NCBI GenBank assembly: GCA_036873755.1
Contig: JAVTVY010008113.1
Coordinates: 186,001-250,000, forward strand
Direction: 5' to 3'
Length of the DNA stretch: 64,000 nucleotides
Source: Hanleya hanleyi
Taxonomy: Eukaryota > Mollusca > Polyplacophora > Lepidopleurida > Hanleyidae
Shown: piece after piece, positions 1 through 64,000 of the stretch
Numbering within the stretch: the first letter of the stretch is position 1
How the letters are laid out: each line of letters starts with the position of its first letter
The notes under the pieces: generated by a model
What the model was told of the DNA's origin: nothing
Databases searched by the model: none
Seen by the model: the letters and a program-made list of their open reading frames with translations, nothing else
Program-made: the position numbers and the translations under genes

Positions 1-400
1 CACCACCACCACCATACACCACCACCACCTGGCGTTGACGGGCGTAAACGCCCGGTGGTGGTGGTAGCTCCCATGTGGCAGAGCTCTTGGTCGGAGCTCT
101 TGGAGCTCAAAGCTTGTGGAGCTCAGAGCTCGGAAGTGACGTCATCGCATGCATGCGCGCGTACCTGTGGTGCACCCTGTGCCCTATAGCCCGTAGGGTA
201 TAGGTTCACCAGGGTGCGGGTGCACCACAGGTACGCGCGCATGCATGCGATGACGTCACTTCCGAGCTCTGAGCTACACGAGCTTTGAGTTCCAAGAGCT
301 CCGATCCAAGAGCTCTGCCACACGGGAGCTACTACCACCACCGGGCGTTGACGCCCTTCACCGCCCGAAGGTGGTGGTGTATGGTGGTGGTGTGTGGTGG
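1..400. repeat. Long inverted repeat (head-to-head element ends)
   Basis: The first ~178 bases are close to the reverse complement of ~211-400. Both arms carry GGCGTTGACGCCC-like palindromes, GAGCTC-rich sequence, GTGACGTCA and GCATGCATGCGCGCGTAC. The arms meet at a small hairpin around 180-210. In the two later units (from about 1425 and 2603) only the right-hand arm is present, so the left arm looks like a second element end joined head to head. It may continue to the left of the window. Confidence 0.8.
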
Positions 401-515
401 TGGTGGAGGTGGTGTGTGGTGGTAGTAGAACTGGTGTGTGGTGGTAGTGGTGGTGGTGGTGGTGGTAGGGTGTGGTGGTAGTAGAACTGGTGTGTGATGG
501 TGTTGGTGGTGGTGT
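365..515. repeat. GGT/GTGGT microsatellite, unit 1
   Basis: Imperfect (GGT)n/(GTGTGGT)n tract between the element head and the ATPase frame. It makes open frames of Thr/His/Pro on the minus strand and Val on the plus strand that are not genes. Homologous tracts lie in units 2 and 3. Confidence 0.9.
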
Positions 516-1084
516 CTGTAAATATAGGAATGAACATGATCAGTCCATGTATTGGTCGACTGATGAACATGTCGTGTACGTGTTCGTTCTGTCAGAGAGC
601 CTTCTCACCTCGCGATAGTATGCTCAGGCACATTCAACGCAAACACAACCAAGAGACACCGCCGAGTCCCGCTATAGGTCCAACAAGAGCAGTAGAACAT
701 CCCTATACGATGACGGTGAGCGGCCCTACTGCATGTGGAAAGACGTCCTGGGTGATGAAGTTCTTATAGGAAGGTGTGGCAACCCCAGCTCCGACACGTG
801 TTGTTTGGTGTTATAGCCATTGGCAGCCCGCCTACGAAACTATCTGGTTACTGAATGTGAGCTTCGTCCCAGGGATTCCTCACGACATAAACGAACCGTA
901 TTACTTTGACCCCGAGCAGACCAACGTGGTAGTGCTAGATGATCTGATGAGTGCGGCCAAGGACAATTTACACGTCGCCGACTTGTTTACTAAAGGATTC
1001 CATCATCGGAATCTGTCCGTCATCTATTTGACCCAGAATCTCTTTCCTCAATGGAATTACAAGTGTCTAGTCCGTCATTCATAA
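494..1084 (+). pseudogene. Zinc finger + packaging ATPase (Polinton/adintovirus type), copy 1, interrupted
   Basis: Seen: one frame of 197 codons broken by a single TAG at 767-769. Before the stop are a C2H2 finger (C-x2-C-x12-H-x4-H, starting CSFCQRAF) and a Walker A loop GPTACGKT. After it are a Walker B VVVLDDLM and a C-terminal stretch containing FHHRNLSVIYLTQNLF. Known: this order of P-loop, DDxM-type Walker B and LTQNxF motif is that of the FtsK/HerA-like ATPase that packages DNA in Polintons and adintoviruses; a leading zinc finger on such proteins is my recollection, not checked. The stop falls between Walker A and B, so this copy cannot make an ATPase without readthrough. The frame ends at CLVRHS, short for the family. 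The Val-rich start is microsatellite; a more likely start is a Met just before the finger. Confidence 0.75.
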
Positions 1085-1424
1085 TTCAGCCGTCGTCCAT
1101 TAGAGAATATCCGCGTCCATAATCCTATTTCATATTCCATATAACAGTATTAGCACCAAATTCAAAAAGACAATCATAGTATACATGAACATAGCCTTGT
1201 TTCCTGCAAGAGAGAAGCGATCAACAGTTTTCAATGATGTCGGCAAGACATCATGATGTTCCAAAAATATCAAATCCGTATCGCTGATCAGTATTCTCAA
1301 TCCATATTATTCGCTGTAAAGTCGTCATCTAAAGAATGATGTATCTCAGTCACGCTATGATTGTGACTGTTCATATGAGTACCATGAGGATCTAGAAGTA
1401 CATGGGTTCTTACGGCCCCTAACG
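1085..1424 (+). repeat. 3' spacer of the ATPase cassette, unit 1
   Basis: Non-coding ~340 bp beginning at the ATPase stop (TAATTCAGCCGTCGTCCATT). It is cut off where the head of unit 2 begins. Other copies lie at 2263-2602, 3516-3884, 41145-41517 (reverse) and in pieces at 50287-51630. Confidence 0.85.
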
Positions 1425-1617
1425 GCACCCTGTACCCTATAGCCCGTAGGGTATATGTTCACCAGGGTGCGGGTGCACCACAAGTACGCGCGCATGCATG
1501 CGATGACGTCACTTCCGAGCTCTGAGCTACACAAGCTTTGAGCTCCAAGAGCTCCGATCCAAGAGCTCTGCCACACGGGAGCTACCACCACCACCGGGCG
1601 TTGACGCCCGTCACCGC

Positions 1618-1735
1618 CCGGTGGTGGTGGTGTGTGGTGGTGGTGGAGGTGGTGTGTGGTGGTGGTAGAACTGGTGTGTGGTGGTAGTGTGTGGTGGTGG
1701 TAGAACTGGTGTGTGGTGGTGTTGGTGGTGGTGTC
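1618..1735. repeat. GGT/GTGGT microsatellite, unit 2
   Basis: Shorter version of the GGT tract, at the same position relative to the ATPase cassette as in unit 1. Confidence 0.9.
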
Positions 1736-1773
1736 TGTAAATATAGGAATGAACATGTGTCCCTCATCAGTCC

Positions 1774-2262
1774 ATGTATTGGTCGACAGATGAACATGTC
1801 GTGTACGTGTTCGTTCTGTCAGAGAACCTTCTCTCCTTGCGAAAGTATGCTATAGGTCCAACAAGAGCAGTAGAACATCCATATACGATGACGGTGAGCG
1901 GCCCTACGGCATGTGGAAAGACGTCCTGGGTGATGAAGTTCTTAGAGGAAGGTGTGGCAACCCCAGCTCCGACACGTGTTGTTTGGTGTTATAGCCAATG
2001 GCAGCCCGCCTACGAAACTCTCAGGTTACTGAATGTGAGCTTCGTCCCAGGGATTCCCCACGACATAAACGAACCGTATTACTTTGACCCCGAGCAGACC
2101 AACGTTGTAGTGCTAGATGATCTGATGAGTGCGGCCAAGGACAATTTACACGTCGCCGACTTGTTTACTAAAGGATTCCATCATCGGAATCTGTCCGTCA
2201 TCTATTTGACCCAGAATCTCTTTCCTCAATGGAATTACAAGTGTCTAGTCCGTCATTCATAA
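1774..2262 (+). pseudogene. Packaging ATPase, copy 2: ATPase frame open, zinc finger lost
   Basis: Seen: 162 codons, open throughout. Walker A is at residues 43-50, Walker B at 111-118 and the TQN motif at about 146-148. At the codon where copies 1 and 3 have TAG, this copy has GAG. However, ~73 bp are missing upstream, so the finger half is read in a different frame and the first ~27 residues have no family resemblance. It is the only copy whose ATPase core is uninterrupted, yet it lacks the normal N terminus. Whether it is expressed is unknown. I call it a remnant because the neighbouring units are plainly broken and no capsid or protease gene was recognised nearby. Confidence 0.65.
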
Positions 2263-2602
2263 TTCAGCCGTCGTCCATTAGAGAATATCCGCGTCCATAA
2301 TCCTATTTCATATTCCATATAACAGTATTAGCACCAAATTCAAAAAGACAATCATAGTATACATGAACATAGCCTTGTTTCCTGCAAGAGAGAAGCGATC
2401 AACAGTTTTCAATGATGTCGGCAAGACATCATGATGTTCCAAAAATATCAAATCCGTATCGCTGATCAGTATTCTCAATCCATATTATTCGCTGTAAAGT
2501 CGTCATCTAAAGAATGATGTATCTCAGTCACGCTATGATTGTGACTGTTCATATGAGTACCATGAGGATCTAGAAGTACATGGGTTCTTACGGCCCCTAA
2601 CG
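2263..2602 (+). repeat. 3' spacer of the ATPase cassette, unit 2
   Basis: Near-identical to 1085-1424 and cut at the same point by the head of unit 3. Confidence 0.85.
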
Positions 2603-2798
2603 GCACCCTGTGCCCTATAGCCCGTAGGGTATAGGTTCACCAGGGTGCGGGTGCACCACAGGTACGCGCGCATGCATGCGATGACGTCACTTCCGAGCTC
2701 TGAGCTACACGAGCTTTGAGTTCCAAGAGCTCCGATCCAAGAGCTCTGCCACACGGGAGCTACTACCACCACCGGGCGTTGACGCCCTTCACCGCCCG

Positions 2799-2946
2799 AA
2801 GGTGGTGGTGTATGGTGGTGGTGTGTGGTGGTGGTGGAGGTGGTGTGTGGTGGTAGTAGAACTGGTGTGTGGTGGTAGTGGTGGTGGTGGTGGTGGTAGG
2901 GTGTGGTGGTAGTAGAACTGGTGTGTGATGGTGTTGGTGGTGGTGT
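2799..2946. repeat. GGT/GTGGT microsatellite, unit 3
   Basis: Nearly identical in length and sequence to the tract of unit 1, which supports a recent copying event between units 1 and 3. Confidence 0.9.
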
Positions 2947-3515
2947 CTGTAAATATAGGAATGAACATGATCAGTCCATGTATTGGTCGACTGATGAACA
3001 TGTCGTGTACGTGTTCGTTCTGTCAGAGAGCCTTCTCACCTCGCGATAGTATGCTCAGGCACATTCAACGCAAACACAACCAAGAGACACCGCCGAGTCC
3101 CGCTATAGGTCCAACAAGAGCAGTAGAACATCCCTATACGATGACGGTGAGCGGCCCTACTGCATGTGGAAAGACGTCCTGGGTGATGAAGTTCTTATAG
3201 GAAGGTGTGGCAACCCCAGCTCCGACACGTGTTGTTTGGTGTTATAGCCATTGGCAGCCCGCCTACGAAACTATCTGGTTACTGAATGTGAGCTTCGTCC
3301 CAGGGATTCCTCACGACATAAACGAACCGTATTACTTTGACCCCGAGCAGACCAACGTGGTAGTGCTAGATGATCTGATGAGTGCGGCCAAGGACAATTT
3401 ACACGTCGCCGACTTGTTTACCAAGCGATTCCATCATCGGAATCTAACCGTCATCTATTTGACCCAGAATCTCTTTCCTCAATGGAATTACAAGTGTCTA
3501 GTCCGTCATTCATAA
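2925..3515 (+). pseudogene. Zinc finger + packaging ATPase, copy 3, interrupted
   Basis: Same structure as copy 1: intact C2H2 finger, Walker A, then the same TAG (3198-3200), then Walker B and the LTQN motif. It differs from copy 1 by a few changes near the 3' end (for example FTKRFHHRNLTV instead of FTKGFHHRNLSV). Because copies 1 and 3 share the stop, the stop came before their duplication. This copy is followed by the full-length spacer and then by a convergent reverse-transcriptase fragment. Confidence 0.75.
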
Positions 3516-3884
3516 TTCAGCAGTCGTCCATTACAGAATATCCGCGTCCATAATCCAAAGACCTATTTCATATTCCATGTAACAGTATTAGCACCGAATT
3601 CAAAAAGACAATCATAGTATACATAAACATAGGCTTGTTTCCTGCAAGAGAGAAGCGGTCAACAGTTTTCAATGATGCCGGCAAGACACCATGATGTTCC
3701 AAAATAAATCCGTATCGCTGATCAGTATTCTTAATCCATAATATTCGTTGTAAAGTCGTCATCTAAAGAATGATGTATCTCAGTCACGCTTTGATTGTGA
3801 CTGTTCATATGAGTACCATGAGAATCTTGAAGTACATGGGTTCATACGGCCCCTTGTCCCGGGTTAAGCGGAATTAGACACAAG
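3516..3884 (+). repeat. Full spacer between convergent ATPase and reverse transcriptase
   Basis: Here the spacer runs on past the breakpoint seen in units 1 and 2 (CGGCCCCTTGTCCCGGGTTA..) and ends at the stop codon of a minus-strand reverse transcriptase. The reverse-complement arrangement is at 41145-41517, so this looks like the original junction. Confidence 0.85.
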
Positions 3885-4411
3885 TTACGAAACGTAGCGC
3901 CATAGATCTTGCACGCTACGTTCGTATTTTTCTATGAGCATGCGATATGTATCGCCAAGTTTGAGAAACTTTGAGTGGAGGCGCTTGGTGGTGTAGCCCT
4001 GTTTTATAAGTTTCTGCACCAATGTTTTGTGACGTTGATTAAAATCGTCACATTTAACACAGGATCTAGCAAATGCTACTAAGCGTGATATGTATACGCC
4101 ATATGCAGGTCCCACTGAATATTACTGTCCAGAAAGGGATAGTTGACGATGTCGAAATTGTAATCATCTCTTTTGTCATAAAGTCGACGAGAGAGAATGC
4201 CCGCTTCATTTTTATAGAGATATAGATCTAAATATGATGTGCCTGTAGGGCTGTCTGTAGTTTCCTTCAAATCCAGTGAAGGTGGATATATATCCTTCAC
4301 CGCGTCATTTATATAGCGATTATCCACAGCGAGAAGATCGTCTATATAGCGTTTGGTGAATGAGAAGGAACGGGCTTTGAATGGATCGGTTTTTGAAAGC
4401 GCCTGCATTTA
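3885..4411 (-). pseudogene. Penelope-like reverse transcriptase, 3' fragment with frameshift and stop
   Basis: Seen on the minus strand: motif C with an intact catalytic pair (RYIDDLLAVDN), then LKETTDSPTGTSYLDLYLY, LYDKRDDYNFDIVNYPFLD and, in another frame, PAYGVYISRLVAFARS and the C terminus ending DLWRYVS. The two frames meet near 4080-4115 (frameshift), and a TAA lies at 4409-4411. Known: the order GIPMGTNCAPLLADL / YIDD / SYLDL / DKRDD..F is a widespread animal reverse transcriptase family that I associate with Penelope-like elements; the exact clade is not certain. The fragment is ~85-90% like the plus-strand copy at 40470-41144 by eye. It is tail to tail with the ATPase of unit 3. Confidence 0.75.
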
Positions 4412-4732
4412 GTCATATTCATAAGAGAACAGATACAGGTCAGTCAACAGGGGTGCACAATTAGTACCCATTGGAATACCTATATGCTGCTGATATATTG
4501 TGATGCCAAATTTCACATATATATTTTTAATGAGAAAGTCATGTGGCTCTGTCAGTATGTCGGCACCTCTTCCCAATTCCCTTATTTGTGTGGCAATTTT
4601 TAACTGTATGTGGCGCGATTCTGCTTGTGGACGTTTCGTCCTCGAGGCCCGCCCCCTGTACAGACCTTTTGGTCTTTGATATATGTTGGCATTGTGGGAA
4701 GCTGATGCTGGGTCGACATCGGGCCTTACAGA
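4409..4732 (-). pseudogene. Chimeric open frame: unknown basic protein joined to reverse transcriptase motif B
   Basis: A 107-codon open frame on the minus strand without an ATG. Its downstream part (4536 to 4412) encodes reverse-transcriptase sequence including GIPMGTNCAPLLTDLYL, and stops at TAA 4409-4411. Its upstream part (4732 to 4537) encodes an Arg/Lys-rich segment (RPKGLYRGRASRTKRP, then IRELGRGADILTEPHDF). The basic part is not reverse transcriptase: the copy at 40.5 kb has different sequence upstream of the join, and a paralogue of the basic part at 5034-5132 ends on its own. I do not recognise the basic protein. Confidence 0.55.
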
Positions 4733-5033: not shown

Positions 5034-5132
5034 CTACACTGTGAAGTCATGTGGCTCTGTCAGTAAGTCGGCACCTCTTCCCACTTCCCTTATATGCGTT
5101 GTAATCTCATCCACCTTTCGTGGAATCGCCCT
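5034..5132 (-). pseudogene. Remnant paralogue of the unknown basic protein
   Basis: A 32-codon open frame without ATG containing KVDEITTHIREVGRGADLLT and ending ..EPHDFTV, stop 5034-5036. It matches the basic half of the chimera at 4537-4580 in both DNA and protein (about 45 bp nearly identical, weaker similarity beyond). It reads away from the zinc-finger gene at 5227, with a TATA-like box between them. Confidence 0.4.
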
Positions 5133-5226: not shown

Positions 5227-5565
5227 ATGCAACAAGCTATTCCTTCCGTAGATCGCCATGGCTGTTTTCCAGATGCAGCAACTCATTTGGATGCAAGACT
5301 GTTGGAGGGCGTTACGTCCATAAAATCAACACTAGGTGAAAGACATGCACAGTCGACGTCTACCCGTTATAGATGCTCCGAGTGCGAACGCACATTCATC
5401 AGACACTACGATATGATGCGGCACCAGAAGAATATACATGGATATGAAGACACCGAGGCACCAGACGTCAATGAGCATCCCGAGGCATATGATGCAGAGA
5501 GTTGGTCGCAGGGAAGCCCAAGTGATGCAGAAGAAAGAGAACTCACCTTTGGAATCGCATTGTAA
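5227..5565 (+). CDS. Small single C2H2 zinc-finger protein
   Basis: A 112-residue ORF with ATG. One classical finger lies at about residues 50-70 (YRCSECERTFIRHYDMMRHQ.., C-x2-C-x12-H-x4-H), followed by an acidic tail rich in Glu, Asp and Ser. The finger resembles in spacing the one at the N terminus of the packaging ATPase copies (CSFCQRAF..MLRHIQRKH), so this may be the front half of a related gene or a separate virus-derived DNA-binding protein. No ATPase follows in frame. It lies between the RT/ATPase remnants and the degenerate repeats at 6.2-6.9 kb. It could be host or element-derived; element-derived is favoured by context. No host family was recognised. Confidence 0.45.
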   Translation: MQQAIPSVDRHGCFPDAATHLDARLLEGVTSIKSTLGERHAQSTSTRYRCSECERTFIRHYDMMRHQKNIHGYEDTEAPDVNEHPEAYDAESWSQGSPSDAEERELTFGIAL

Positions 5566-5682
5566 CAGCGGCTATTAATACCCATGCTGAGGGGACACAA
5601 GATGCCGGAGAGAATAACTTATAACAGGCGTACGCCATCATCCTTCCCACATCAAGAAAAAAAAAACAGCCATGGCGATCTA
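5249..5682. repeat. 20-bp perfect inverted repeat, ~395 bp apart
   Basis: TAGATCGCCATGGCTGTTTT at 5249-5268 is exactly reverse-complemented at 5663-5682. The left copy lies inside the zinc-finger ORF; the right copy covers the ATG of the next small ORF. Confidence 0.7.
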
Positions 5683-5990
5683 TGAACCGTATAGGCTCTT
5701 GTCGCTTGAAAAGAAGGTCGACATCAGGCACCGAGCCATCATGCAAACCAAGCGGTACTTAGAACCGGGTATGAGGTTACCGCCGATTAAATCCGTTAAA
5801 TATGCGTTCCCAGGTCCGGTACCAACCTGAAAAGGCGAAGAAATTGGGGTCAACCTACCCGATTATTAATAATTTTTCTCACCGTAATTGGGACATAACT
5901 GACGCAGAACAAAATTCACTCCCCGACTACTCTATAGACGAAACCAGCTATCGACCCGTATATGCCAGTTTGCACCACTGGCGATGCTGA
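5672..5990 (+). CDS. Two overlapping short ORFs, unknown
   Basis: An ORF of 52 codons (ATG 5672, stop 5828-5830; begins MAIYEPYRLLSLEKKVDIRH) overlaps a second of 62 codons in another frame (ATG 5802, stop by 5990; contains STYPIINNFSHRNWDITDAE). Both have protein-like composition. They could be one gene split by a frameshift near 5800-5830. I do not recognise either. A leader with A10 precedes the first ATG. Confidence 0.3.
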
Positions 5991-18895: not shown

Positions 18896-19625
18896 GTGGT
18901 AATTCCTCTAATTCAATCCCCCTATCAAAATTCAATCACCCCCAATTTTGGTTATCCCCCTAATAATTCAATCCCCCTATCAGAATTCAATCACTCCCAA
19001 TTTTGGTTATCCCCCTAATAATTCAATCCTATCAAAATTCAATCACCCCCAATTTTGGTTATCCCCCTAATAATTCAATCCTATCAAAATTCAATCACCC
19101 TCAATTTTGGTTATCCCCCTAATAATTCAATCCTATCAAAATTCAATCACCCCCAATTTTGGTTATCCCCCTAATAATTCAATCCTATCAAAATTCAATC
19201 ACCCTCAATTTTGGTTATCCCCCTAATAATTCAATCCTATCAAAATTCAATCACCCCCAATTTTGGTTATCCCCCTAATAATTCAATCCTATCAAAATTC
19301 AATCACTCCCAATTTTGGTGATCCCCCTAATAATTCAATCCTATCAAAATTCAATCACCCCCAATTTTGGTGATCCCTCTAATAATTCAATCCCCCTATC
19401 AAAATTCAATCACCCCCAATTTTGGAGACAAAATTCAATCATCTGTTCTAATAAATTTGATCACCCCCTAAAATCATTGAATACATGTAACAAAGAAACA
19501 ATGGATTACCTGCAGGATTTTGAACCATTTTCTCAACTTCCTGTTCTAAAAAATTTGCACACCCCCTCAGCTTATAGTGCAAAAATTTCACTTCCTGTGA
19601 TCAAATTATTACAGGGATCACCGTA
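18896..19625 (+). repeat. MITE expanded by a ~53-bp internal tandem repeat
   Basis: About nine copies of a ~53-bp unit (AATTCAATCCTATCAAAATTCAATCACCCCCAATTTTGGTTATCCCCCTAAT, given in full here only as its parts: AATTCAATCCTATC, AAAATTCAATCACCCCC, AATTTTGGTTATCCCC) run from ~18902 to ~19440. The ends resemble those of the MITE at 16985 (GGTAATTCCTCTAATTCA; TCAAATTATTACAGGGATCACC). Confidence 0.75.
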
Positions 19626-25535: not shown

Positions 25536-28500
25536 TATTAATTGGATTTTCGAATCAGACCGATAAAGCTATCTTGCAAAACTAGGCCCCATCTGGGACC
25601 TGTGTACCAAATTTCAGAAAGATCCATGAAATATTTTCCGAGAATTCAAGATAACAGTGTTTCAAGGAGAAATTCAAGATGGCCACCTGGCAACCATATT
25701 GGATTTTTGAATCTGACCAAAAAAGGTATCTTGCACAACTGGACCACAAGGGGAATCTGTGTACCAAATTTGAGGAAGATCCATGCAGTACTTCTTGAGA
25801 AATCACGATAACAAAGTTTCATTGGGAAATCCAAGATGGGCGCCTGGTGGCCATATTGGATTTTCGAATCGGACCAGAAAATGTATCTTGCACAACCTGG
25901 TGGCCATATTGGATTTTAAATTTGAACCGAAAAAGGTATCTTGCACAACTAGATCATAAGGTGAACCTGTGTACCAAGTTTGAGAAAGATCCATGCAGTA
26001 CTTCCTGAGAAATGACGATAAAGTTTCTTGGGGAAATCCAAGATGGCTGCTTGGTGGCCAAATTGGATTTTTGAATTGGACCAGGAAAGGCATCTTGCAC
26101 AACTAGACCCCAAGGCGAACCCGTGTATCAAATTTGAGAAAGATCCATGCAGTAGTTCTTGAGAAATTGTGATAACAAGGTTTCATGGGGAAATCCAAGA
26201 TGGCCACCTTCTGGCCATATTGGATCTTCGATTGGGACCGCAAAAGGTATCTTGCAAAACTAGACCCTAAGGAGAATCTGTGAACCTAATTTGAGAAAGA
26301 TCCATGCAGTACTGAGAAATGGCGATAACTAAGTTTCATGTGGAAATCCAAGATGGCTTCCTGGTGGCCATATTGGATTTTCGAATCGGAAGAGAAAGGG
26401 TATCTTGCTCAACTAGACCCCATGTGGCACCTGTGTACCAAATTTAAGAAAGATCCATGCAGTAGTTCCTGAGAAATCGCAGGAACAAAGGTTCATGTGG
26501 AAATCCAAGATGGCTGCCTGGTGGCCATATTGGATTTTCGAATCGGAAGAGAAAGGGTATCTTGCTCAACTAGACCCCATGTGGCACCTGTGTACCAAAT
26601 TTGAGAAAGATCCATGCAGTAGTTCCTGAGAAATCGCGGTAACAATGTTTCATGGGGAAATCCAAGATGGCTGCCTGGTGGCCATATTGGATTTTCGAAT
26701 CGGACCAGAAAAGGTTTCTCTCACAACTAGACCCCAAGGGGAACCTGTGTACCAAATTTGGAAAAGATCCATGCAGTAGTTCCGGAGAAATCGCGGTAAC
26801 AAGGTTTCATGGGGAAATCCAAGATGGCTGCCTGTTGGCCATATTGGATTTTTGAATCGGACCAGAAAAGGTTTGTTGCACAACTAAACCCCAAGGGGAA
26901 CCTGTGTACCAAATTTGGAAAAGATCCATGCAGTAGTTCCGGAGAAATCGCGGTAACAAGGTTTCATGGGGAAATCCATGATGGCCGCCTGGTGGCCATA
27001 TTGGATTTTCAAATCGGAAGAGAAAGGGTATCTTGCTCAACTAGACCCCATGTGGCACCTGTGTACCAAATTTGAAAAAGATCCATGCAGTAGTTCCTGA
27101 GAAATCGCGGTAACAAGGTTTCATGGGGAAATCCAAGATGGCCGCCTGGTGGCCATATTGGATTTTCGAATCGGACCAGAAAAGGTTTCTTGCACAACTA
27201 GACCCTGAGGGGAACCTGTGTACCAAATTTGAAAAAGATCCATGCGGTAGTTCCTGAGAAATCGCGGTAACAAGCTTTTATGGGAAAATCCAAGATGGCT
27301 GCCTGGTGGCCATATTGGATTTTCGAATCGGACCAGAAAAGGTTTCTTGCACAAGTAGACCCCAAGGGGAACCTGTTTACCAGATTTGAAAAAGATCCAT
27401 TCAGTAGTTCCTGAGGAATCGCGGTAACAAGTTTTCATGGGGAAATCCAAGATGGCTGCCTGGTGGCCATATTGGATTTTCGAATCGGAACAGAAAAGGT
27501 TTCTTGCACAACTAAACCCCAAGGGGAACCTGTGTACCAAATTTGAAAAAGATCCATGCAGTAGTTCCTGAGAAATCGCGGTAACAAGCTTTTATGGGGA
27601 AATCCAAGATAGCTGCCTGGTGGCCATATTGGATTTTCGAATCGGATCAGAAAAGGTTTGTTGCACAACTAGACCCCAAGGGGAACCTGTGTACCAAATT
27701 TGGGAAAGATCCATGCAGTAGTTCCTGAGAAATCGCGGTAACAAGGTTTCATGGGGAAATCCAAGATGGCTGCCTGGTGGCCATATTGGATTTTCGAATC
27801 GAACAAGAAAAGGCATATTGCACAACTAGACCCCAAGGGGAACCTGTGAACCAAATTTGAGAAAGATCCATGCAGTAGTTCGGAGAAATCGGTAACAAGG
27901 TTTCATGGGGAAATCGAATGTACCTGGTGGCCATATTGGATTTCGAATCACCAGAAAATGTTTCTTGCACAACTAGACCCCGAGGGGAACCTGTGTACCA
28001 AATTTGAAAAAGATCCATGCAGTAGTTCCTGAGAAATCGCGGTAACAAACTTTTATGGGGAAATCCAAGATGGCTGCCTGGTGGCCATATTGGATTTTCG
28101 AATCGGATCGGAAAAGGTTTGTTGCACAACTAGACCCCAAGGGGAACCTGTGTACCAAATTTGAGAAAGATCCATGCAGTAGTTCCTGAGAAATCGCGGT
28201 AACAAGGTTTCATGGGGGAAATCAAGATGGCACCTGGTGGCCATATTGGATTTTCGAGATCGGACAGAAAAGGGTTTCTTGCACAACTAGACCACAGGGA
28301 ACCTGTGGCACCAAATTTGGAAAAGATCCATGCAGTAGTTCCTGAGAAATCGCGGTAACAAGGTTTCAGGGGGGAAATCCAAGATGGCTGCCTGGTGGCC
28401 ATATTGGATTTTCGAATCGGACAGAAAAGGTTTCTTGCACAACTAGACCCCAAGGGGAACCTGTGTACCAAATTTGGAAAAGATCCATGCAGTAGTTCCT

Positions 28501-29444
28501 GAGAAATCGCGGTAACAAGCTTTTATGGGAAAATCCAAGATGGCTGCCTGGTGGCCATATTGGATTTTCGAATCAGGTTTCTTTTCATTGGAGCCACGGG
28601 AACCTGTTTATAGATTTGAAAAGATCCCATTCAGTAGTTTCTGAGGAATGCAGCGGTGGCACTGAAGTTTCAGCCAGGGAAATCCAAGATGGCTGCCTGG
28701 TGGCCATGTGGTTTTCAGATCGGACCAGAAAAGGTTTCTTGCACAACTAGACCCCGAGGGGAACCTGTGTACCAAATTTGAAAAGATCGTGCAGTAGTTT
28801 CGAAAAATCGCGGTAACAAGCATGAAATCAAGATGGCTGCCTGGTGGCCATATTGGATTTTCGAATCAGATCCAGACCCCAAGGGGAACCTGTGTACCAA
28901 ATTTAGAAAAGATCCATGCAGTAGTTCCGGAGAAATCGCGGTAACAAGGTTTCATGGGGAAATCCAAGATGGCTACCTGGTGGTCATATTGGATTTTCGA
29001 ATCGGACCAGAAAAGGTTTCTTGCACAACTAGACCCCAAGGGGAACCTGTGTACCAAATTTGTTAAAGATCCATGCAGTAGTTCCGGAGAAATCGCGGTA
29101 ACAAGGTTTCATGGGGAAATCCAAGATGGCCGCCTGGTGGCCATATTGGATTTTCGAATCCGGACCAGAAAAGGTTTCTTACTGCAAACTAGACCCCAAG
29201 AGGGGAACCTGTGTACCAAATTTGGAAAAGATCCATGCAATAGTTCCGGAGAAATCGCGGTAACAAAGTTTCATGGGGAAATCCAAGATAGCTGCCTGGT
29301 GGCCATATTGGATTTTCGAATCGGACCAGAAAAGGTTTCTTGCACAACTAGACCCCAAGGGGAACCTGTGTTCCAAATTTGAAAAAGATCCATGCAGTAG
29401 TTCCTGAGAAATCGCGGTAACAAGAATTGTTTACGGACGGACGG

Positions 29445-38602: not shown

Positions 38603-39184
38603 GGGTTCAGCTTGTTGAACTACTCGGTACCGCCGTATTGGACACCATTGAGACCCCAGTTTTCGCGTCATTCACACGAGCAGCACTCTCGGTAGCTGTG
38701 AATTTTGTCTTTGTCTAGCATCATCTGCAAATGAAATCTCAAGTCCGATGTCTGTCACATATGATAGAGATCGTGCTTCTAAGAGCAAATGCAAAATCAG
38801 TGTAATATTTTACCATTTCAGCGTGATATTGTGGAAAATATCTTCCGCAATCCGATAGAAAGTACAAAACACTTTACGACAATGAATTTGACCCCGGGTA
38901 CAATTCATAAGTTAGCAGGACAATAACGGATGACGTCACCGAAAACAGTGAGTCCGCTTACACACTGCAATTGTCTCCCTTCATTTACCGCCATCGTGGA
39001 GTAGACTCCCCCTTGACCACTGTGCTGATTTTCTGATCGCCCATTGATCTTGCTTGGTTGACATAAAACATTCAGCATCAATGTATATATGTGAAATCTA
39101 AAACCGAATAATGTGTGTTAATAGTAGCAGCATGTTCTAGTTTTTATCATAAATTTTATTTGATAGCAAAACAACAAACAGCAC
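38603..39184. other. No gene seen
   Basis: 38601-38720 repeats the TAGGGTTCAGCTTGTTGAAC motif of the neighbouring element. The remainder is unrecognised and may include the 5' end of the reverse-transcriptase element. Confidence 0.4.
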
Positions 39185-41144
39185 TTGCCAACAGCAGTAA
39201 TAATCGAAACATCCCAAGATCGGCTTTTCTTGAAACTCAACTACTCAGATAAAGGACTGGACATTATTAATTTATCTCGAATCCTGAATGATCCAGAGGT
39301 ACGCAACGCTGTACCAAACTATCTTAAGTTCACAGAACCTCTTTACATTTCATATAAGTATACTAAATCTATAGCCACCAAAATATTCAATTACTCTAAT
39401 GCTGTCAAGGAGTTTGGTTGGAACTTATACACGTCAGGAGGCTATAGTTGTGATTGTGAATCGTCGAACTTTATCTATACACCATGCAAACATGTTGACT
39501 GGTAACCATTGATGTAGTTAGTGATAATTAGGACCTAAAATTATTCCTGATGATGGGACCTAAATATAGAGAGCCGAGGAGAATAAATCTGAAGGCCGAC
39601 CAGAAGATAGTCGTGTCTGCATTGAAACAGTACGTTATTGATTGGTCTAAGCGAGAAAAAGTTGAACCTACAGTACTCGCTGATTGACTGGACCTCACCA
39701 AGAGCAAGGTCGTTGAAACAATCCGCCATATTGACTGAAGTACCCTTCCCCAAGCAAAACAAATACTGAGAAACCCCAATTCGCAAGAAGTTCTAGCAAA
39801 TCCACAGAGTAAATTCGTCATAGTCCCAGCAGACAAAGCTCCAAATAATATAATATTCATATGTAAATATTACTATTACCAGGTGCTGGTTAAAGAATTG
39901 AGTGTAAACGTATCATCATCAAATACGTCTACTTACTCCCAAACTGCATTTACTCTGGAAGATTTATTTAACAATCACAATTAACGTTTCTCAGGGAAAG
40001 AGGTAGTCGTCTTCCAACCAATCATAACCACATACCAAAAGTATACTGGACCCCCAAAATGCATAAATCACCATACAAAACTAGATTCATAGCTGGTTCT
40101 AGAAGCTGTACCACCAAGCTTCTTTCAACCCTGTTGACAAGGGCCCTTCAGGAGGTAAAAGCATTTTGGGAAAGGTACTGCGCCACTATTTCTAAGAACT
40201 CTGGCGTTGAATGTATGTGGATATTGAAAAACTCAAAATGTCTTACGGAAGAACTTGACGCTAAAGGTCACATACCGTACAGACATGTATCCACATGGGA
40301 TTTCTCGACTCTCTATACTACAATCCCTCATGAGGACCTTATTGACCGTCTAAGTTCATTAATAATATCTGTGTTCAAGAAAAGTGATCGTAGATATATT
40401 AATGTCGGAAGCCATAAAGCATTCTTTAGCTCTACTGCATACAAGAGATATCATTTATAGGATGTTTCGTTGTTTATAGAGTTGCTTGAATTTCTCATTA
40501 AAAATATCTATGTGAAATTTGGCAACACAATATATCAACAGCATATAGGTATTCCAATGGGTACTAATTGTGCACCCCTGTTGGCTGACCTATATCTGTT
40601 TTCTTATGAATATGACTATAGGCAGGCGCTTTCAAAAACCGATCCATTCAAAGCCCGTTCCTTCTCATTCACCAAATGTTATATAGACAATATTCTCGCT
40701 GTGGACAATCGCTATATAAATGACGCAGTGAAGGATATATATCCACCTTCACTGGATTTGAAGGAAACTACAGATAGCCCTACAGGCACATCATATTTAA
40801 ATCTATATCTCTATAAAAATGAAGCGGGCATTCTCTCTCGTCGATTTTATGACAAAAGAGATGATTACAATTTTGATATCGTCAACTATCCTTTTCTGGA
40901 CAGTAATATTCCAGTGGAACCTGCATATGGTGTATACATATCTCGCATAGTAGCATTTGCTAGATCCTGTGTTGAATGTGATGAATTTAATCAACGTCAC
41001 AAAACATTGTTGCAGAAACTTATAAAACATGGCTATACCACCAAGCGCCTCCACTCAAAGTTTCTCAAATTCGGCGATACATATCGCATGCTGATAGCAA
41101 AATACGAGCGTAGCGTGCAAGATCTATGGCGTTACGTTTCGTAA
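39185..41144 (+). pseudogene. Penelope-like reverse transcriptase, near full length, decayed
   Basis: Read across frames: an N-terminal region (39185-39505, ending CESSNFIYTPCKHVDW), then stops and frame changes to ~40050 with VIVPADKAPNN still visible. Then come KSPYKTRFIAGSRSCTT, motif A WDFSTLYTTIPH, motif B GIPMGTNCAPLLADLYL, motif C YIDNILAVDN, and the C-terminal DKRDDYNFDIV..DLWRYVS ending at 41144. Motif C has Asn where the second catalytic Asp should be; the fragment at 3.9-4.5 kb keeps YIDD. A stop at ~40458-40460 and several earlier ones confirm it is dead. It is followed by the same spacer that joins the ATPase and RT ends at 3.5-3.9 kb. I see no GIY-YIG domain attached. Confidence 0.75.
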
Positions 41145-41523
41145 CTTGTGTCTAATTCCGCTTAACCCAGGGCTAGGGGTCGTATGCACCCATGTACTTC
41201 AAAATCCTCTTGGTGCTCATATGAACAGTCACAATTAAGCGGGACTGAGATTCATCATTTCCAGATGACGACTTTACAACGATTATTATGGATTAAGAAT
41301 GCTGATCAGCGATACGGATTTGATATGTTTGGAACATCATGATGTCTTGCCGGCATCAATGAAAACTGTTGACCGCTTCTCTCTTGCAGGAAACTAACCT
41401 TTGTTTATGTATGCCATGATTGTCTTTTTGAGTTTGGTGCTAATACTGTTATATGGAATATGGAATAGGTCTTTGGGTTATGGACGCGGATATTCTTTAA
41501 TGGACGACGGCTGAATTATGAAT
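41145..41523 (-). repeat. ATPase-RT spacer in reverse, ending in the last ATPase codons
   Basis: Reverse complement of 3516-3884. Just past it (41508-41523) the last three codons and stop of the ATPase frame are still present on the minus strand, after which similarity stops. Confidence 0.8.
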
Positions 41524-41631
41524 GACGGATCACACGCTTGTTCTTGCTCATTTTCAGTTTTGATTTTAGTTGCTGCACCTTCAAGCACATCGCTTTTCCG
41601 ACAGATTTCCCTTGACACTGTCTACATGAAC

Positions 41632-49772: not shown

Positions 49773-50018
49773 TACGGAAGCGTATTAGTGCCAGTGTGAA
49801 AAAAAAAATTCCGAGATTTATCTCCTAATTAGGACATAATATCTCCTAATTAGGAGATAATGGTCATTATCTCCTAATTAGGAGATAATAAGTCCTAATT
49901 AGGAGATAATATGTCCTAATTAGGAGATAATTATCTCCTAATTAGGAGATATTATGTCCTAATTAGGAGATAAATCTCGGAATTTTTTTTTTCACACTGG
50001 CACTAATACGCTTCCGTA
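49773..50018. mobile_element. MITE built of TCCTAATTAGGA palindromes
   Basis: 246 bp, bordered by the 6-bp duplication GAAAAC (49767-49772, 50019-50024). The terminal inverted repeats start TACGGAAGCGTATTAGTGCC and extend ~50 bp through an A10 run. The interior is about eight copies of the self-complementary TCCTAATTAGGA separated by AGATAAT-type links. Confidence 0.9.
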
Positions 50019-50248
50019 GAAAACATCTAACGGGTAAGAATGAATATGACAGATGCAGCACCAAACGGCAGCTCCTGATCGGACAAGAGCAAACCTGAAT
50101 TGTAAACATACCTAACGCGGCTCCTCCAGCTCGGATATGATGTTACATTGGGGAGAATAAACTATATAAAAACTTGTGAACGTGTTGATCTTTCTGTCTC
50201 TCATCTGTCTGCATCATGGCGTCAAGGTGTTGAGATGGGCGTTAAGAT

Positions 50249-50540
50249 AGGTGTTAATTTACAAGCGTCTAGTCCGTCATTCAACATTCAGCCGTCGTCC
50301 ATTAAAGAATTCCGCGCCCATAATCCAAAGACCTAATCCATCTAATAGCATTATTACCAAATTAGAAGAATAAATCATAGTATAAATAAAACTAGCTGGT
50401 TTCCTACAAGATAGAAGCGGTGAACAGTTTTCGATGATACCGGCAAGACATCATGATGTTCCAAACATATCAAATCCGTATCGCTGATCAGTATCCTTCA
50501 TCCACATCAGTTTCGTTGTAAAGTCGTTATCTAGAGTTAG
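50249..50540 (+). pseudogene. ATPase 3' end plus spacer, partial copy
   Basis: The last six or so ATPase codons (AAGCGTCTAGTCCGTCATTC), with the stop changed, then the spacer to GTAAAGTCGTTATCTAGAG. It corresponds to 3497-3765. Confidence 0.7.
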
Positions 50541-50569
50541 AGTTATCGTTACTCTACTCCACGACAGCT

Positions 50570-50995
50570 TCAGTATAACATTCCACACGGCCCATTCGGA
50601 CCACGGATTGTCCATCTCTACCCCAAAACGTCCATTCAAATGCCCTTTTCTCCATTGTGCATGCGCGCCATAGCCTTACTTCCACTACACACCATTACAG
50701 TCGGATTCTCCCTTACGAGTACTTCAATATAACACCCCATTCGGAGCAGGGATGGTCAATTTCTACCCCAAAACGTCCACTCAAATGCCCTAGCTTCGCC
50801 ACGATTCTCTGTCTGTCCATGAGCAGATGTATGTCTGTTTCACCACACATCAGTTCGTTCGGGCACTCCCCACGTGTGCTTCAATATGACACGTTACACG
50901 AACCATTCGGACCAATGATGGCCGACCTTGACCTCAAACCGTCCACTCCAGATCTGCCTATGCACCACGAATGCGCAGTCAGAATTTTTCACCGA
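50570..50995 (+). repeat. Tandem ~130-160 bp repeats shared with 6.2-6.9 kb
   Basis: Three units each carry CTTCAATATRACAC.., CCATTCGGACCANNGATGG, CTACCCCAAAACGTCCACTC and CATGCGC. The module CTTCAATRYGACAC / TTYGGACCACG is shared with 6230-6900. Confidence 0.6.
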
Positions 50996-51062
50996 ACGTC
51001 AACTCATGGCCACGAGACCCCTTCTATCGTATTCTGCAGCGTGAGACAGAAAGATTGAGGCT

Positions 51063-51420
51063 ACACTCTCAGAAATATTCAGGGAATAATCCTGAATAGA
51101 TCAGGCTGCACATCCACAACTCAGTTTCAGGGATTTTACCTGAAATCCAGGGATAATTTCCTGAAATTCATGTATATCATCCTTGAATTAAAGCTAAATT
51201 ACCTGAATTTTAGGGAATTTTATGTACCTGAATAGGGTCGAGAACTTACTAATCAGGGTGATAAATTTGCCTGAATTTCGGGGAAAATCCTCTCATTCAG
51301 GGATCTTTTTTCTGAAATTCAGGTAATTATCCCTGAATTTCAGGTAAAATCCCTGAAATTGAGTTGTGGATGTGCAGCCTGATCTATTCAGGATTATTCC
51401 CTGAATATTTCTGAGAGTGT
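51063..51420. mobile_element. 358-bp MITE with AGGCT target duplication
   Basis: ACACTCTCAGAAATATTCAG.. is mirrored to 51420, with terminal inverted repeats of ~65 bp. AGGCT lies on both sides (51058-51062, 51421-51425). The inside is built of CCTGAATTTCAGG-like palindromes. Confidence 0.85.
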
Positions 51421-51425
51421 AGGCT

Positions 51426-51910
51426 AATTTTCTGCAAGAGAGAAGCGGAAAACAGTTTTCAATGATGCCAGTAAGACGTCATCATGTTCCAAAAATATCA
51501 AATCTGTATCAGTATATAATATATCTCAGTCAGGCTTTGATTGTGACTGTTCATATCGACACTATGAGGATCTTGAAATACATGGCTTCATACGGCTCCT
51601 AGCCCCGGGTTAAGCGGAGTTAAACACAAGTTACGAAACGTACCGTCAAACATCTTGCACGCTAGGCTCATATTTTGCTATCAGCATGCGATATGTATCG
51701 TTAAATTTGAGAAACCTCGAGTGGAGGCGCTTTATGATATATCCCTGTTTTATAAGTTTCTGCAATAACGTTTTGTGACGTTGACTAAAATCGTCACATT
51801 TAACACATGCCATATGCAGATCCCTCTGGTATATTGCTGTCCAGATAGGGATAGTTTATGATGTCGAAATTGTAATCATCTCTTTCATTGTAAAGTCGAC
51901 GAGAGAGAAA
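51426..51910 (-). pseudogene. Spacer and reverse transcriptase C-terminal fragment, second partial copy
   Basis: The spacer from CTGCAAGAGAGAAGCGG (matching 3640 onward) leads into a minus-strand RT 3' end: stop at 51631-51633, then sequence matching 3885-4195 with deletions. It repeats spacer sequence already present in 50398-50530, so the two partial copies stand in tandem. Confidence 0.65.
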
Positions 51911-61652: not shown

Positions 61653-62718
61653 CGCCATGCCCTTATGGCAGGGTTGCAGTCATACCCTTATGGCACGGTT
61701 GCCCTTATGGCAGGGTTGCAGTCATACCCTTACGGCAGGGTTGCAGACATGCCCTTATGGCAGGGCTGCAGTCATACCCTTATGACAGGGTTGCAGGCAT
61801 GCCCTTATGGCAGGGCTGCAGTCATACCCTTATGACAGGGTTGCAGGCATGCCCTTATGGCAGGGCTGCAGTCATACCCTTATGACAGGGTTGCAGTCAT
61901 ACCCTTATGGCAGGGTTGCAGTCATACCCTTATGGCAGGGTTGCAGGCATGCCCTTATGGCAGGGCTGCAGTCATACCCTTATGACAGGGTTGGAGGCAT
62001 GCCCTTATGGCAGAGTTGCAGTCATACCCTTATGACAGAATTGCAGTCATACCCTTATGACAGGGTTGCAGTCATACCCTTATGACAGGGTTGGAGGCAT
62101 CCCTTATGGCAGGGTTGCAGTCATACCCTTATGGCAGGGTTGCAATCATACCCTTATGGCAGGGTTGCAGGCATACCCTTATGACAGGGTTGCAGTCATA
62201 CCCTTATGACAGGGTTGCAGTCATACCCTTATGACAGGGTTGGAGGCATGCCCTTATGGCAGGGTTGCAGTCATACCCTTATGACAGGGTTGCAGTCATA
62301 CCCTTATGACAGGGTTGCAGTACCCTTATGACAGGGTTGCAGTCATACCCTTATGACAGGGTTGCAGTCATACCCTTATGGCAGGGTTGCAGTCATACCC
62401 TTATGACAGGGTTGCAGTCATACCCTTATGACAGGGGGAGGCATGCCCTTATGGCAGGGTTGCAGTCATACCCTTATGGCAGGGTTGCAGGCATACCCTT
62501 ATGGCAGGGTTGCAGTCATGCCCTTAGGGCAGGGTTGCAGTCATACCCTTATGGCAAAATTACAGTCATGCCCTTATGGCAGGGTTGCAGGCCTGCCTTA
62601 CGGCAGGGTTGCAGTCATGCCCATTTGACAGGGTTGTAGTCATGCCCTTATGGGCAGGGTTACAATCATGCTCTTATGGTAGAGTTGCAGTCATGCCCTT
62701 ATGGTCGGGTGATGGTCA
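61653..62718. repeat. 25-bp minisatellite, about 40 copies
   Basis: Unit CCCTTATGRCAGGG-TTGCAGTCATA with RY variants (GTCATAC/GGCATGC). Because 25 is not a multiple of 3, translated frames repeat every 75 bp. The ~60-100 codon open frames are by-products. It is presumably inside intron 4. Confidence 0.9.
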
Positions 62719-63292: not shown

Positions 63293-64000
63293 CGGTGTTC
63301 AGGTAGTGTCCCGACGTTTTGGGGCAAAGATGACTTGGGGTTGTGTCCCGGCGTTTTTGGGGCGAAGATGACTGGGGTTGTGTTCCGACGTTTTGGGGCA
63401 AAGATGACTGGGGGGTTGTGTTCCGACGTTTTGAGGCAAAGATGACTGGGGTTGTGCCCCGACGTATTGGGGCAAAGATGACTGGGGTTGTGTCCCGACG
63501 TTTTGGGGCAAAGATGACTGGAGTTGTGTCCCGATATTTTGGGGCAAAGATGACTGGGGTTGTCCCGACGTTTTGGGGCAAAGATGACACGGGTTGTGCC
63601 CCGACGTTTTGAGGCAAAGATGACTGGGGTAGTGTCAGACGTTTTGGGCAAAGATGACTGGGGTTTTGTCCCAACGTTCTGGGGCAAAGATGACTGGAGT
63701 TATGTTCCGACGTTTTGGGGCGGGCTAGATGACTAGGGTTATGTCCCGACGTTTTGGGGCAAATATGACTGGGCGGTGTCTCGACGTTTTGGGGCAAAGA
63801 TGACTGGGGTTGTGTCCCGACGTTTTGGGAAAAGATGACTGAGGTTGTGTCCCGACGTTTTGGGAAAAGATGACTGGGGTTGTGTCCCGACATTTTGGGG
63901 CAAAGATGACTGGGTTTATGTTGCGACGTTTTGTGGGCAAAGGCGACTGGGCTGTGTCTCGACGTTTTGGGGCAAAGATGACTGGGGTTGTGTCCCGAGG
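63293..64000. repeat. 36-bp minisatellite, about 20 copies, running out of the window
   Basis: Unit TTGTGTCCCGACGTTTTGGG-GCAAAGATGACTGGGG with small variation. Since 36 is a multiple of 3, long open frames of a 12-residue repeat appear on both strands (the longest, minus, 63237-63893). They are judged non-coding. Confidence 0.9.

What the first reader, a model, noticed from the sequence alone, without database searches (positions are those of the whole stretch)
494..4536. Recurring convergent pair: packaging ATPase and Penelope-like reverse transcriptase share one spacer
At 3.5-4.5 kb an ATPase end and an RT end face each other across a ~370-bp spacer. The mirror arrangement is at 39185-41523, where the last ATPase codons are still attached, and pieces of it are at 50249-51910. 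Seen directly: the same junction at three loci. Established: Polinton/adintovirus elements carry such ATPases but use protein-primed DNA polymerase, and RT of this type belongs to retroelements. Inference: either one element carries both genes, or an RT inserted once beside an ATPase and the compound was then copied. A real element with both would be unfamiliar.
Basis: partly seen in the sequence, partly recalled or inferred. Interest (0 to 1): 0.75.

Follow-up and report, generated by a model that had tools for sequence, protein, structure and literature searches.

The report
Retroelement inserted in palindromic Maverick derivative
The two genes do not form one element: a common Penelope-like retroelement jumped into a gene of a separate, very abundant DNA element related to Mavericks (virus-like transposons), and that second element is often built as a near-perfect palindrome.

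Summary
The convergent ATPase/RT junction at 3.5-4.5 kb is real, but it is not "the same junction at three loci". The spacer and the supposed last ATPase codons are the 3' end of a Penelope-like retroelement. In 20 of 20 other copies fetched, this end is fixed; the ATPase-side flanks have nothing in common; the RT side is truncated at variable points. Only 2 of the 20 abut an ATPase, each a different ATPase cut at a different site. The window's junction 23-mer occurs 7 times in 2.48 Gb, all in this tandem array or a near-identical second contig. Head-to-tail tandem copies show a unit of about 3.37 kb (GIY-YIG, RT, 3' UTR) without an ATPase: Naiad-like domain order. The ATPase belongs to a non-autonomous Maverick/Polinton-derived family (1513 exact hits of one 26-mer) with AGTAGTAG termini and 6-bp target duplications. 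6 of 7 such elements examined are long palindromes; one of these lacks both genes, the others have ATPase copies head to head. The searches I ran listed no paper on palindromic Mavericks. The stated finding is ordinary nesting; the palindromic element is the interesting part.

The parts
172..1420 (+). tandem unit 1: sequence from the palindrome centre + ATPase fragment (542-1051) + retroelement 3' end (1059-1421)
   Evidence: self-BLAST; tblastn of intact ORF1; retroelement map
1425..2598 (+). tandem unit 2: ATPase fragment (1769-2229) + retroelement 3' end (2237-2599)
2603..3854 (+). tandem unit 3: ATPase fragment (2973-3482, ORF1 residues 7-176) ending at the retroelement insertion
177..213 (.). 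approximate centre of the palindromic Maverick derivative; the left arm, with ORF1 and ORF2 frames free of internal stops, lies outside the window at C7829:183251-185817 (L032)
   Evidence: inverted self-match centred at about window 195; ORF1 and ORF2 in L032
3490..4541 (-). 5'-truncated Penelope-like (Naiad-type) retroelement; 3' end at 3489/3490, 3' UTR including the 'spacer' 3516-3884, RT from 3885, broken by stops and frameshifts
5044..5105 (-). small further RT fragment (90% identical to part of the RT at 4536-4597)
5341..5809 (+). remnant of ORF2 of the Maverick derivative (C2H2 finger protein) in the right arm
   Evidence: tblastn
39200..41541 (+). second copy of the same retroelement, longest in the window, with CDC motif (39167-39505 frame), RT core and 3' end at 41541; no ATPase found beside it
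50259..50536 (-). third retroelement copy, 3' end piece, next to Maverick-derivative sequence at 50018-50246
51420..51909 (-). third retroelement copy, second piece (71-77% identical)

Best explanation
Two unrelated mobile elements are nested. (A) A Penelope-like retroelement of the Naiad type (GIY-YIG endonuclease, then RT, then about 0.4 kb 3' UTR; about 3.37 kb in all) inserts by target-primed reverse transcription: it keeps its 3' end and is truncated at variable points on the 5' side. It landed once in (B), an ATPase gene of a non-autonomous Maverick/Polinton-derived element. After that, a piece holding the ATPase fragment and the retroelement's 3' end was amplified in tandem at this locus. 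Element B is typically a palindrome: each arm runs from an AGTAGTAG terminus through subterminal repeats of about 150 bp, ORF2 and ORF1 (C2H2 finger + packaging-type ATPase) to the centre, where the two ATPase genes stand head to head. B integrates as a whole with a 6-bp target duplication, presumably by a Maverick integrase supplied in trans. I infer that the palindrome arises by snap-back copying during protein-primed replication. Shown: the nesting, both sets of termini, the target duplications, the palindromes, the confinement of the junction to one array. Inferred: target priming, trans supply, snap-back, order of events in the tandem array.
For: Retroelement is independent: 20 of 20 sampled copies share a fixed end. 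Collinear sharing among copies runs 0.4 to over 2.3 kb on the RT side and there is no common sequence on the other side (exceptions named in the Against line). In L002, L003 and L032 the 3' end of one copy is joined straight to the 5' part of another, the joined 5' part ending at the same place (3367-3368 bp from the 3' end of L021's copy), so a full unit has no ATPase. L034 carries a 1.25-kb copy in one palindrome arm; the other arm reads GGAGTTGAGTGAGG, and the copy is flanked GGAGTTGA|...|TTGAGTGAGG. Domain order: GIY-YIG (PF01541, 2.3e-4) upstream of RT in L021. Single event: junction 23-mer only 7 times, all in this array or C31795. ATPase element: C2H2 + Pox_A32/IVa2-like relatives; TSDs 6/6 in L029, L033, L036 and 5/6 in L035, with AGTAGTAG...CTACTACT ends, the end motif and TSD length reported for vertebrate Mavericks (PMC8097293, passages read). 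Palindromes: L029, L030, L031, L034, L035, L036. In the first 100 of 1513 exact 26-mer hits there are 26 head-to-head pairs within 3 kb and none of another orientation. ORF2: in 5 of 5 elements with both arms long enough to compare, the arms are mutual best matches.
Against: L013 and L025 also have the retroelement abutting ATPase genes in the same convergent orientation, and 6 of 27 scored retroelement 3' ends lie within 1 kb of Maverick-derived sequence; a targeting preference is not excluded. Some of the 20 one-kb flanks do share sequence pairwise: L009-L024 (another retroelement piece), L013-L017 (in both, the matched part overlaps ATPase), L018-L023 (80 bp); L022 and L024 also hold further retroelement pieces. 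The L034 duplication is 2-4 bp because the element's own last bases, AAT(T), overlap it; duplications at the 20 copies' own sites were not resolved. The GIY-YIG match is slightly under Pfam's cut-off (21.8 vs 22.6 bits). RT placement in the Naiad clade was not tested by a tree, and the Naiad paper is not held. L033 is not palindromic. For ORF1, L034's two arms are not each other's closest relatives. The palindromes come from one assembly; no reads were seen.
Confidence: 0.93

Rival explanations
1. One composite element carries both a packaging ATPase and an RT and moves as a unit.
For: Convergent ATPase|RT junctions in the window, L013 and L025.
Against: 18 of 20 sampled copies have no ATPase at the junction; the three junctions cut the ATPase at different residues and involve different ATPases; junction 23-mer confined to one array; tandem retroelement units leave no room for an ATPase; clean insertion with the empty site in the other arm in L034.
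Confidence: 0.01
2. The retroelement is not random in its choice: it prefers Maverick-derived DNA, or ATPase genes, as target, so the pairing recurs by targeting.
For: ATPase directly at 3 of 27 scored retroelement 3' ends, counting the window locus that prompted the search, and Maverick-derived sequence within 1 kb at 6 of 27 (window 3489, window 50261, L013, L017, L025, L026); one insertion inside L034.
Against: No base rate for Maverick-derived DNA in this genome was obtained; the ATPase family is very abundant (1513 exact hits of one 26-mer). No common target motif was evident by eye at the 20 ends. 3 of the 27 are joins to another copy's 5' part, not new sites.
Confidence: 0.2
3. The palindromes are not made by snap-back replication but by ordinary inverted duplication of an integrated copy, or are assembly artefacts.
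For: Inverted duplications arise in genomes generally; palindromes are hard to assemble; a near-identical second contig (C31795) of the window locus exists.
Against: A 6-bp TSD flanks the whole palindrome in L029 and L036 (6/6) and L035 (5/6), so the palindrome was there at integration. Arms differ by 1-7% in ORF2, and L034 has the retroelement in one arm only, which an assembly mirror would not produce.
Confidence: 0.15

Closest known systems
Naiad Penelope-like elements (Craig et al. 2021, Mol Biol Evol; features recalled, paper not held)
   Same: GIY-YIG before RT, CxC between them, no endonuclease after RT, many copies, 5' truncation, tandem and inverted arrangements
   Different: Nothing clearly different found; RT phylogeny not tested
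Maverick/Polinton (PMC8097293, passages read; PMC6431247, passages read)
   Same: (AGT)n...(ACT)n termini, 6-bp target duplications, packaging-type ATPase
   Different: 5.8-8.1 kb in the three palindromes measured end to end (L029, L035, L036), only ATPase and a small C2H2 protein or neither; whole element is a palindrome instead of having terminal inverted repeats round a unique middle
Foldback-type transposons and palindromic left-end defective adenovirus genomes (recalled)
   Same: Element or genome is largely an inverted repeat; the second also uses protein-primed replication
   Different: Foldback elements have other transposases; adenovirus palindromes are not integrated transposons

Membership tests
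Naiad (Penelope-like element) | GIY-YIG endonuclease N-terminal to RT | tested here: met
   L021:7011-7730(-) PF01541 2.3e-4, 21.8 bits (cut-off 22.6), upstream of RT; tested in one copy only, reading interrupted by stops
Naiad (Penelope-like element) | CxC motif between endonuclease and RT (recalled) | tested here: met
   'YSCDC' in window 39167-39505, read by eye
Naiad (Penelope-like element) | no endonuclease after RT | tested here: met
   RT frame ends at 41144 followed by about 0.4 kb to the element's 3' end
Naiad (Penelope-like element) | RT falls in the Naiad clade in a tree | not tested
   no labelled reference set fetched
Penelope-like element | 5'-truncated copies with tandem or inverted partners | tested here: met
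   variable truncation; in 5 of 20 loci (L011, L013, L016, L020, L024) the last shared point downstream is a second, inverted 3' end; head-to-tail joins in L002, L003, L032
Maverick/Polinton | 6-bp target duplication and AG(T)-repeat termini | tested here: met
   L029, L033, L036 6/6; L035 5/6; the other 3 of 7 elements were not scored at both ends
Maverick/Polinton | packaging ATPase | tested here: met
   database relatives of ORF1 match PF04665/PF02456; ORF1 itself only 12.6 bits to PF04665 and 17.8 to a C2H2 profile, both under cut-off
Maverick/Polinton | protein-primed DNA polymerase, integrase, capsid genes in the same element | tested here: not met
   in L029 and L030 the frames of 130 aa or more inside the palindrome are ORF1, ORF2 or frames overlapping them or the centre; only ORF1 and ORF2 were run against Pfam; hence 'Maverick-derived, non-autonomous'
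Composite ATPase-RT element | both genes inside common termini at independent loci | tested here: not met

The most novel reading that the evidence does not exclude
This genome holds a lineage of Maverick-derived elements that replicate and integrate as complete palindromes. Arms are homogenised at each round by snap-back (hairpin) copying during protein-primed replication, giving very many head-to-head ATPase palindromes. Either end of a Maverick may do this, since a DNA-polymerase-bearing pair at C41214 is also mirror-symmetric (91.5% over 413 bp at the predicted mirror position; a second pair, C4967, showed no match at its predicted mirror).
Probability: 0.5. Interest if true: 0.7.

Novelty: new variant of a known kind. 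Interest (0 to 1): 0.42.

Why it matters
The claimed ATPase-RT element can be struck off the list. The Maverick derivative beside it bears on an open question. Mavericks are thought to replicate by protein priming, but that replication is hardly seen directly (recalled). Integrated palindromes flanked by one target duplication would be a genomic record of snap-back intermediates, and they can be counted, dated and compared between species by computation alone.

Tried and rejected
Viral contigs: four scans (single ATPase, single RT, RT alignment, ATPase alignment) gave no relative. Pfam on the window's RT and ATPase pieces: no match at the limits used for the ATPase pieces; one RT piece weakly RVT_1. 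RT piece against solved structures: nothing; RT profile: one match at chance level, E 0.74. Rfam on L021, L025, L034 (hammerhead check): 0 matches. Simple search for target duplications at the 20 retroelement copies by longest common substring: inconclusive; replaced by the L034 empty-site comparison. One element carrying both genes, and last ATPase codons at 41.5 kb: rejected. Palindromy of a second polymerase pair (C4967): no match at the predicted mirror. Left out of the 27 scored 3' ends: L004, where my pattern found no end, and further 3' ends seen inside the fetched loci. Flank matches of L028, window 41541 and L032_4199 to stretches of L030 and L031 that may lie outside the palindromes were not counted as Maverick-derived. 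Literature: searches; no listed title or abstract start describes a palindromic Maverick, but one search listed 20 of 44 papers and one search listed 10 of 26. Passages were read in PMC11071296, PMC6431247, PMC8097293, PMC3846280, PMC2836005, PMC11167929 and PMC12477816. The retroelement's genome-wide count by pattern did not complete, nor was the genome search with its 5' part.
Full report
What was claimed.

The sequence. The window is G000:C7829:186001-250000 of a 2.48-Gb assembly in 52,793 contigs. ATPase fragments lie on + at 542-1051, 1769-2229 and 2973-3482, and an RT broken by stops and frameshifts lies on - from 3885. Self-comparison shows the ATPase plus spacer three times in tandem, and spacer plus RT again at 41541-40487 and in pieces at 50259-50536 and 51420-51909.

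The spacer belongs to the RT element. A genome search with the spacer gave 6416 first-look candidates, of which 40 were scored, all 96-100% identical. I fetched 10 kb (9.9 kb in one case) round 20 of the 39 scored copies other than the window's own. In 20 of 20 the copy starts at the same point, about 27-30 bp before the spacer, with ATT(A/G)CAAGCG; 15 of 20 have a further A before it. No sequence before that point is common to the copies; three pairs of the 20 one-kb flanks share something: L009-L024 another retroelement piece, L013-L017 a stretch that overlaps ATPase in both, L018-L023 80 bp. On the other side sharing runs for variable lengths, from about 0.4 kb to more than 2.3 kb, into the RT. 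That is the pattern of a retroelement with a fixed 3' end and 5' truncation. The 'last ATPase codons' at 41.5 kb are this terminus read in the ATPase frame; intact relatives continue LFPQGKASRDIAL.

A full unit has no ATPase. In L002, L003 and L032 the 3' end of one copy is joined directly to the 5' part of another, at the same place in all three, 3367-3368 bp from the 3' end of the copy in L021. The unit between holds GIY-YIG, RT and 3' UTR.

ATPase at the junction is rare, and where present it is different. tblastn with an intact ORF1 finds ATPase abutting the retroelement end in L013 and L025 only, 2 of 20; L017 has one about 0.6 kb away and L026 one about 3.5 kb from the 3' end. The three junctions (window, L013, L025) cut the ATPase at different places, and the L013 ATPase (45% identical to ORF1 over 136 residues) resumes beyond the retroelement. 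An exact 23-base junction pattern occurs 7 times in the genome: 3 in the window array and 4 in C31795 at the same unit spacings of 1178 and 1253 bases. A 681-base piece of C31795 is 100% identical to the window. So this is one insertion followed by local tandem amplification; C31795 is an allele or an assembly duplicate.

Independent proof of mobility. In L034 the two arms of a palindrome are 96-97% identical except that one holds a 1.25-kb retroelement copy. The empty arm reads GGAGTTGAGTGAGG; the occupied arm reads GGAGTTGA, retroelement, TTGAGTGAGG. The duplication is 2-4 bp, the doubt being how many of the bases AATT at the end belong to the element. No target sequence was lost.

What the retroelement is. 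The longest copy examined (L021) encodes a GIY-YIG domain upstream of the RT, the window copy at 39.2 kb has a CDC motif before the RT, and only about 0.4 kb follows the RT. This is the domain order of Naiad Penelope-like elements (recalled; Craig et al. 2021, seen cited in PMC11167929 and PMC12477816; the paper itself is not held). In 5 of the 20 loci the last shared point is a second, inverted 3' end, and further inverted copies occur in others; inverted and tandem arrangements are described for Penelope elements in PMC3846280 (passages read). Mechanism: target-primed reverse transcription, inferred from the family.

What the ATPase element is. Database relatives of the ATPase match Pox_A32 and adenovirus IVa2 profiles and several carry an N-terminal C2H2 finger. 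In this genome one 26-mer of the gene occurs exactly 1513 times (control 0). I examined six ATPase loci and one locus chosen from a terminus pair. L029 is a palindrome of 8.15 kb; L030, L034 and L035 are palindromic; L031 is palindromic with losses; L033 has one arm but both termini. L036, chosen from a terminus pair without regard to the ATPase, is a palindrome of 5.8 kb in which neither ORF1 nor ORF2 was seen. So 6 of 7 are palindromic; L029 and L030 had been picked because the hit table showed inverted pairs, the other five had not. Target duplications could be read at both ends in four: ATCAAC, AGCAAG, TGCGCC (each 6 of 6) and TACGC(C/T) (5 of 6), with AGTAGTAG...CTACTACT termini. PMC8097293 reports 6-bp duplications and (AGT)2...(ACT)2 ends for vertebrate Mavericks (passages read). 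Among the first 100 listed 26-mer places there are 26 head-to-head pairs within 3 kb (median 1.3 kb) and no close pair of another orientation. The exact terminus 25-mer gave 54 places, including 12 complete +/- pairs 1.7-11.8 kb apart.

How the palindromes may arise. The duplication flanks the whole palindrome in L029, L035 and L036, so the palindromic form was what integrated. For ORF2, the two arms of the same element are mutual best matches in 5 of 5 elements with both arms long enough to compare (93.0-99.0% within, median 92.5% between); for ORF1 this holds in L029 but not in L034, the only two with both arms in the comparison. Arm renewal at or shortly before integration explains this; snap-back copying during protein-primed replication is the mechanism I think most likely (inference). 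ORF1 and ORF2 show median dN/dS of 0.49 (36 of 36 pairs) and 0.60 (74 of 78 pairs) among the copies aligned, some of them broken, suggesting some coding constraint. Whether integrase and polymerase come in trans is inferred; polymerase-B genes are present in the genome (164 PF03175 matches from 84 scored of 1723 candidates), and one of two tested divergent polymerase pairs is mirror-symmetric where sampled.

The window locus. Its palindrome has the left arm outside the window (L032, with ORF1 and ORF2 frames free of internal stops), its centre near window 195, and a right arm consisting of the triplicated ATPase fragment, the retroelement, and ORF2 remnants at 5341-5809.

Verdict. The reported compound is a nested insertion, well explained. 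The by-product, a large family of palindromic Maverick derivatives, is not described in the papers that my searches listed and deserves its own study.

Noticed in passing
L029, L030, L034, L035, L036 (whole loci): Palindromic Maverick-derived elements; 6-bp target duplications read in L029, L035 (5 of 6) and L036. The main by-product of this work.
   Followed up: yes
G000:C41214:90702-103225 (L038, L039): Divergent pair of polymerase-B genes whose intervening DNA is mirror-symmetric where sampled (91.5% over 413 bp); C4967 pair showed no match where tested.
   Followed up: partly
L031:1904-2491: GIY-YIG domain (PF01541 3.3e-4, under cut-off) of what looks like another, canonical Penelope-like element inside a Maverick derivative.
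   Followed up: no
ORF1 residues 353-421 and ORF2 126-195; fingers 14-44 and 15-45: ORF2 looks like ORF1 without the ATPase: both share a C2H2 finger and a weakly similar C-terminal stretch (blastp 9e-7 and 0.001).
   Followed up: partly
terminus 25-mer: Strand imbalance: 18 forward and 36 reverse matches, though the 12 complete pairs are balanced; cause unknown.
   Followed up: no
window 25541-29424, 61656-62704, 63302-63998, 18921-19425: Long tandem arrays with units of 157, 25, 36 and 52 bases.
   Followed up: no
G000:C31795:9953-13584: Second contig carrying the window's ATPase-retroelement array with at least four units; allele or assembly duplicate.
   Followed up: partly
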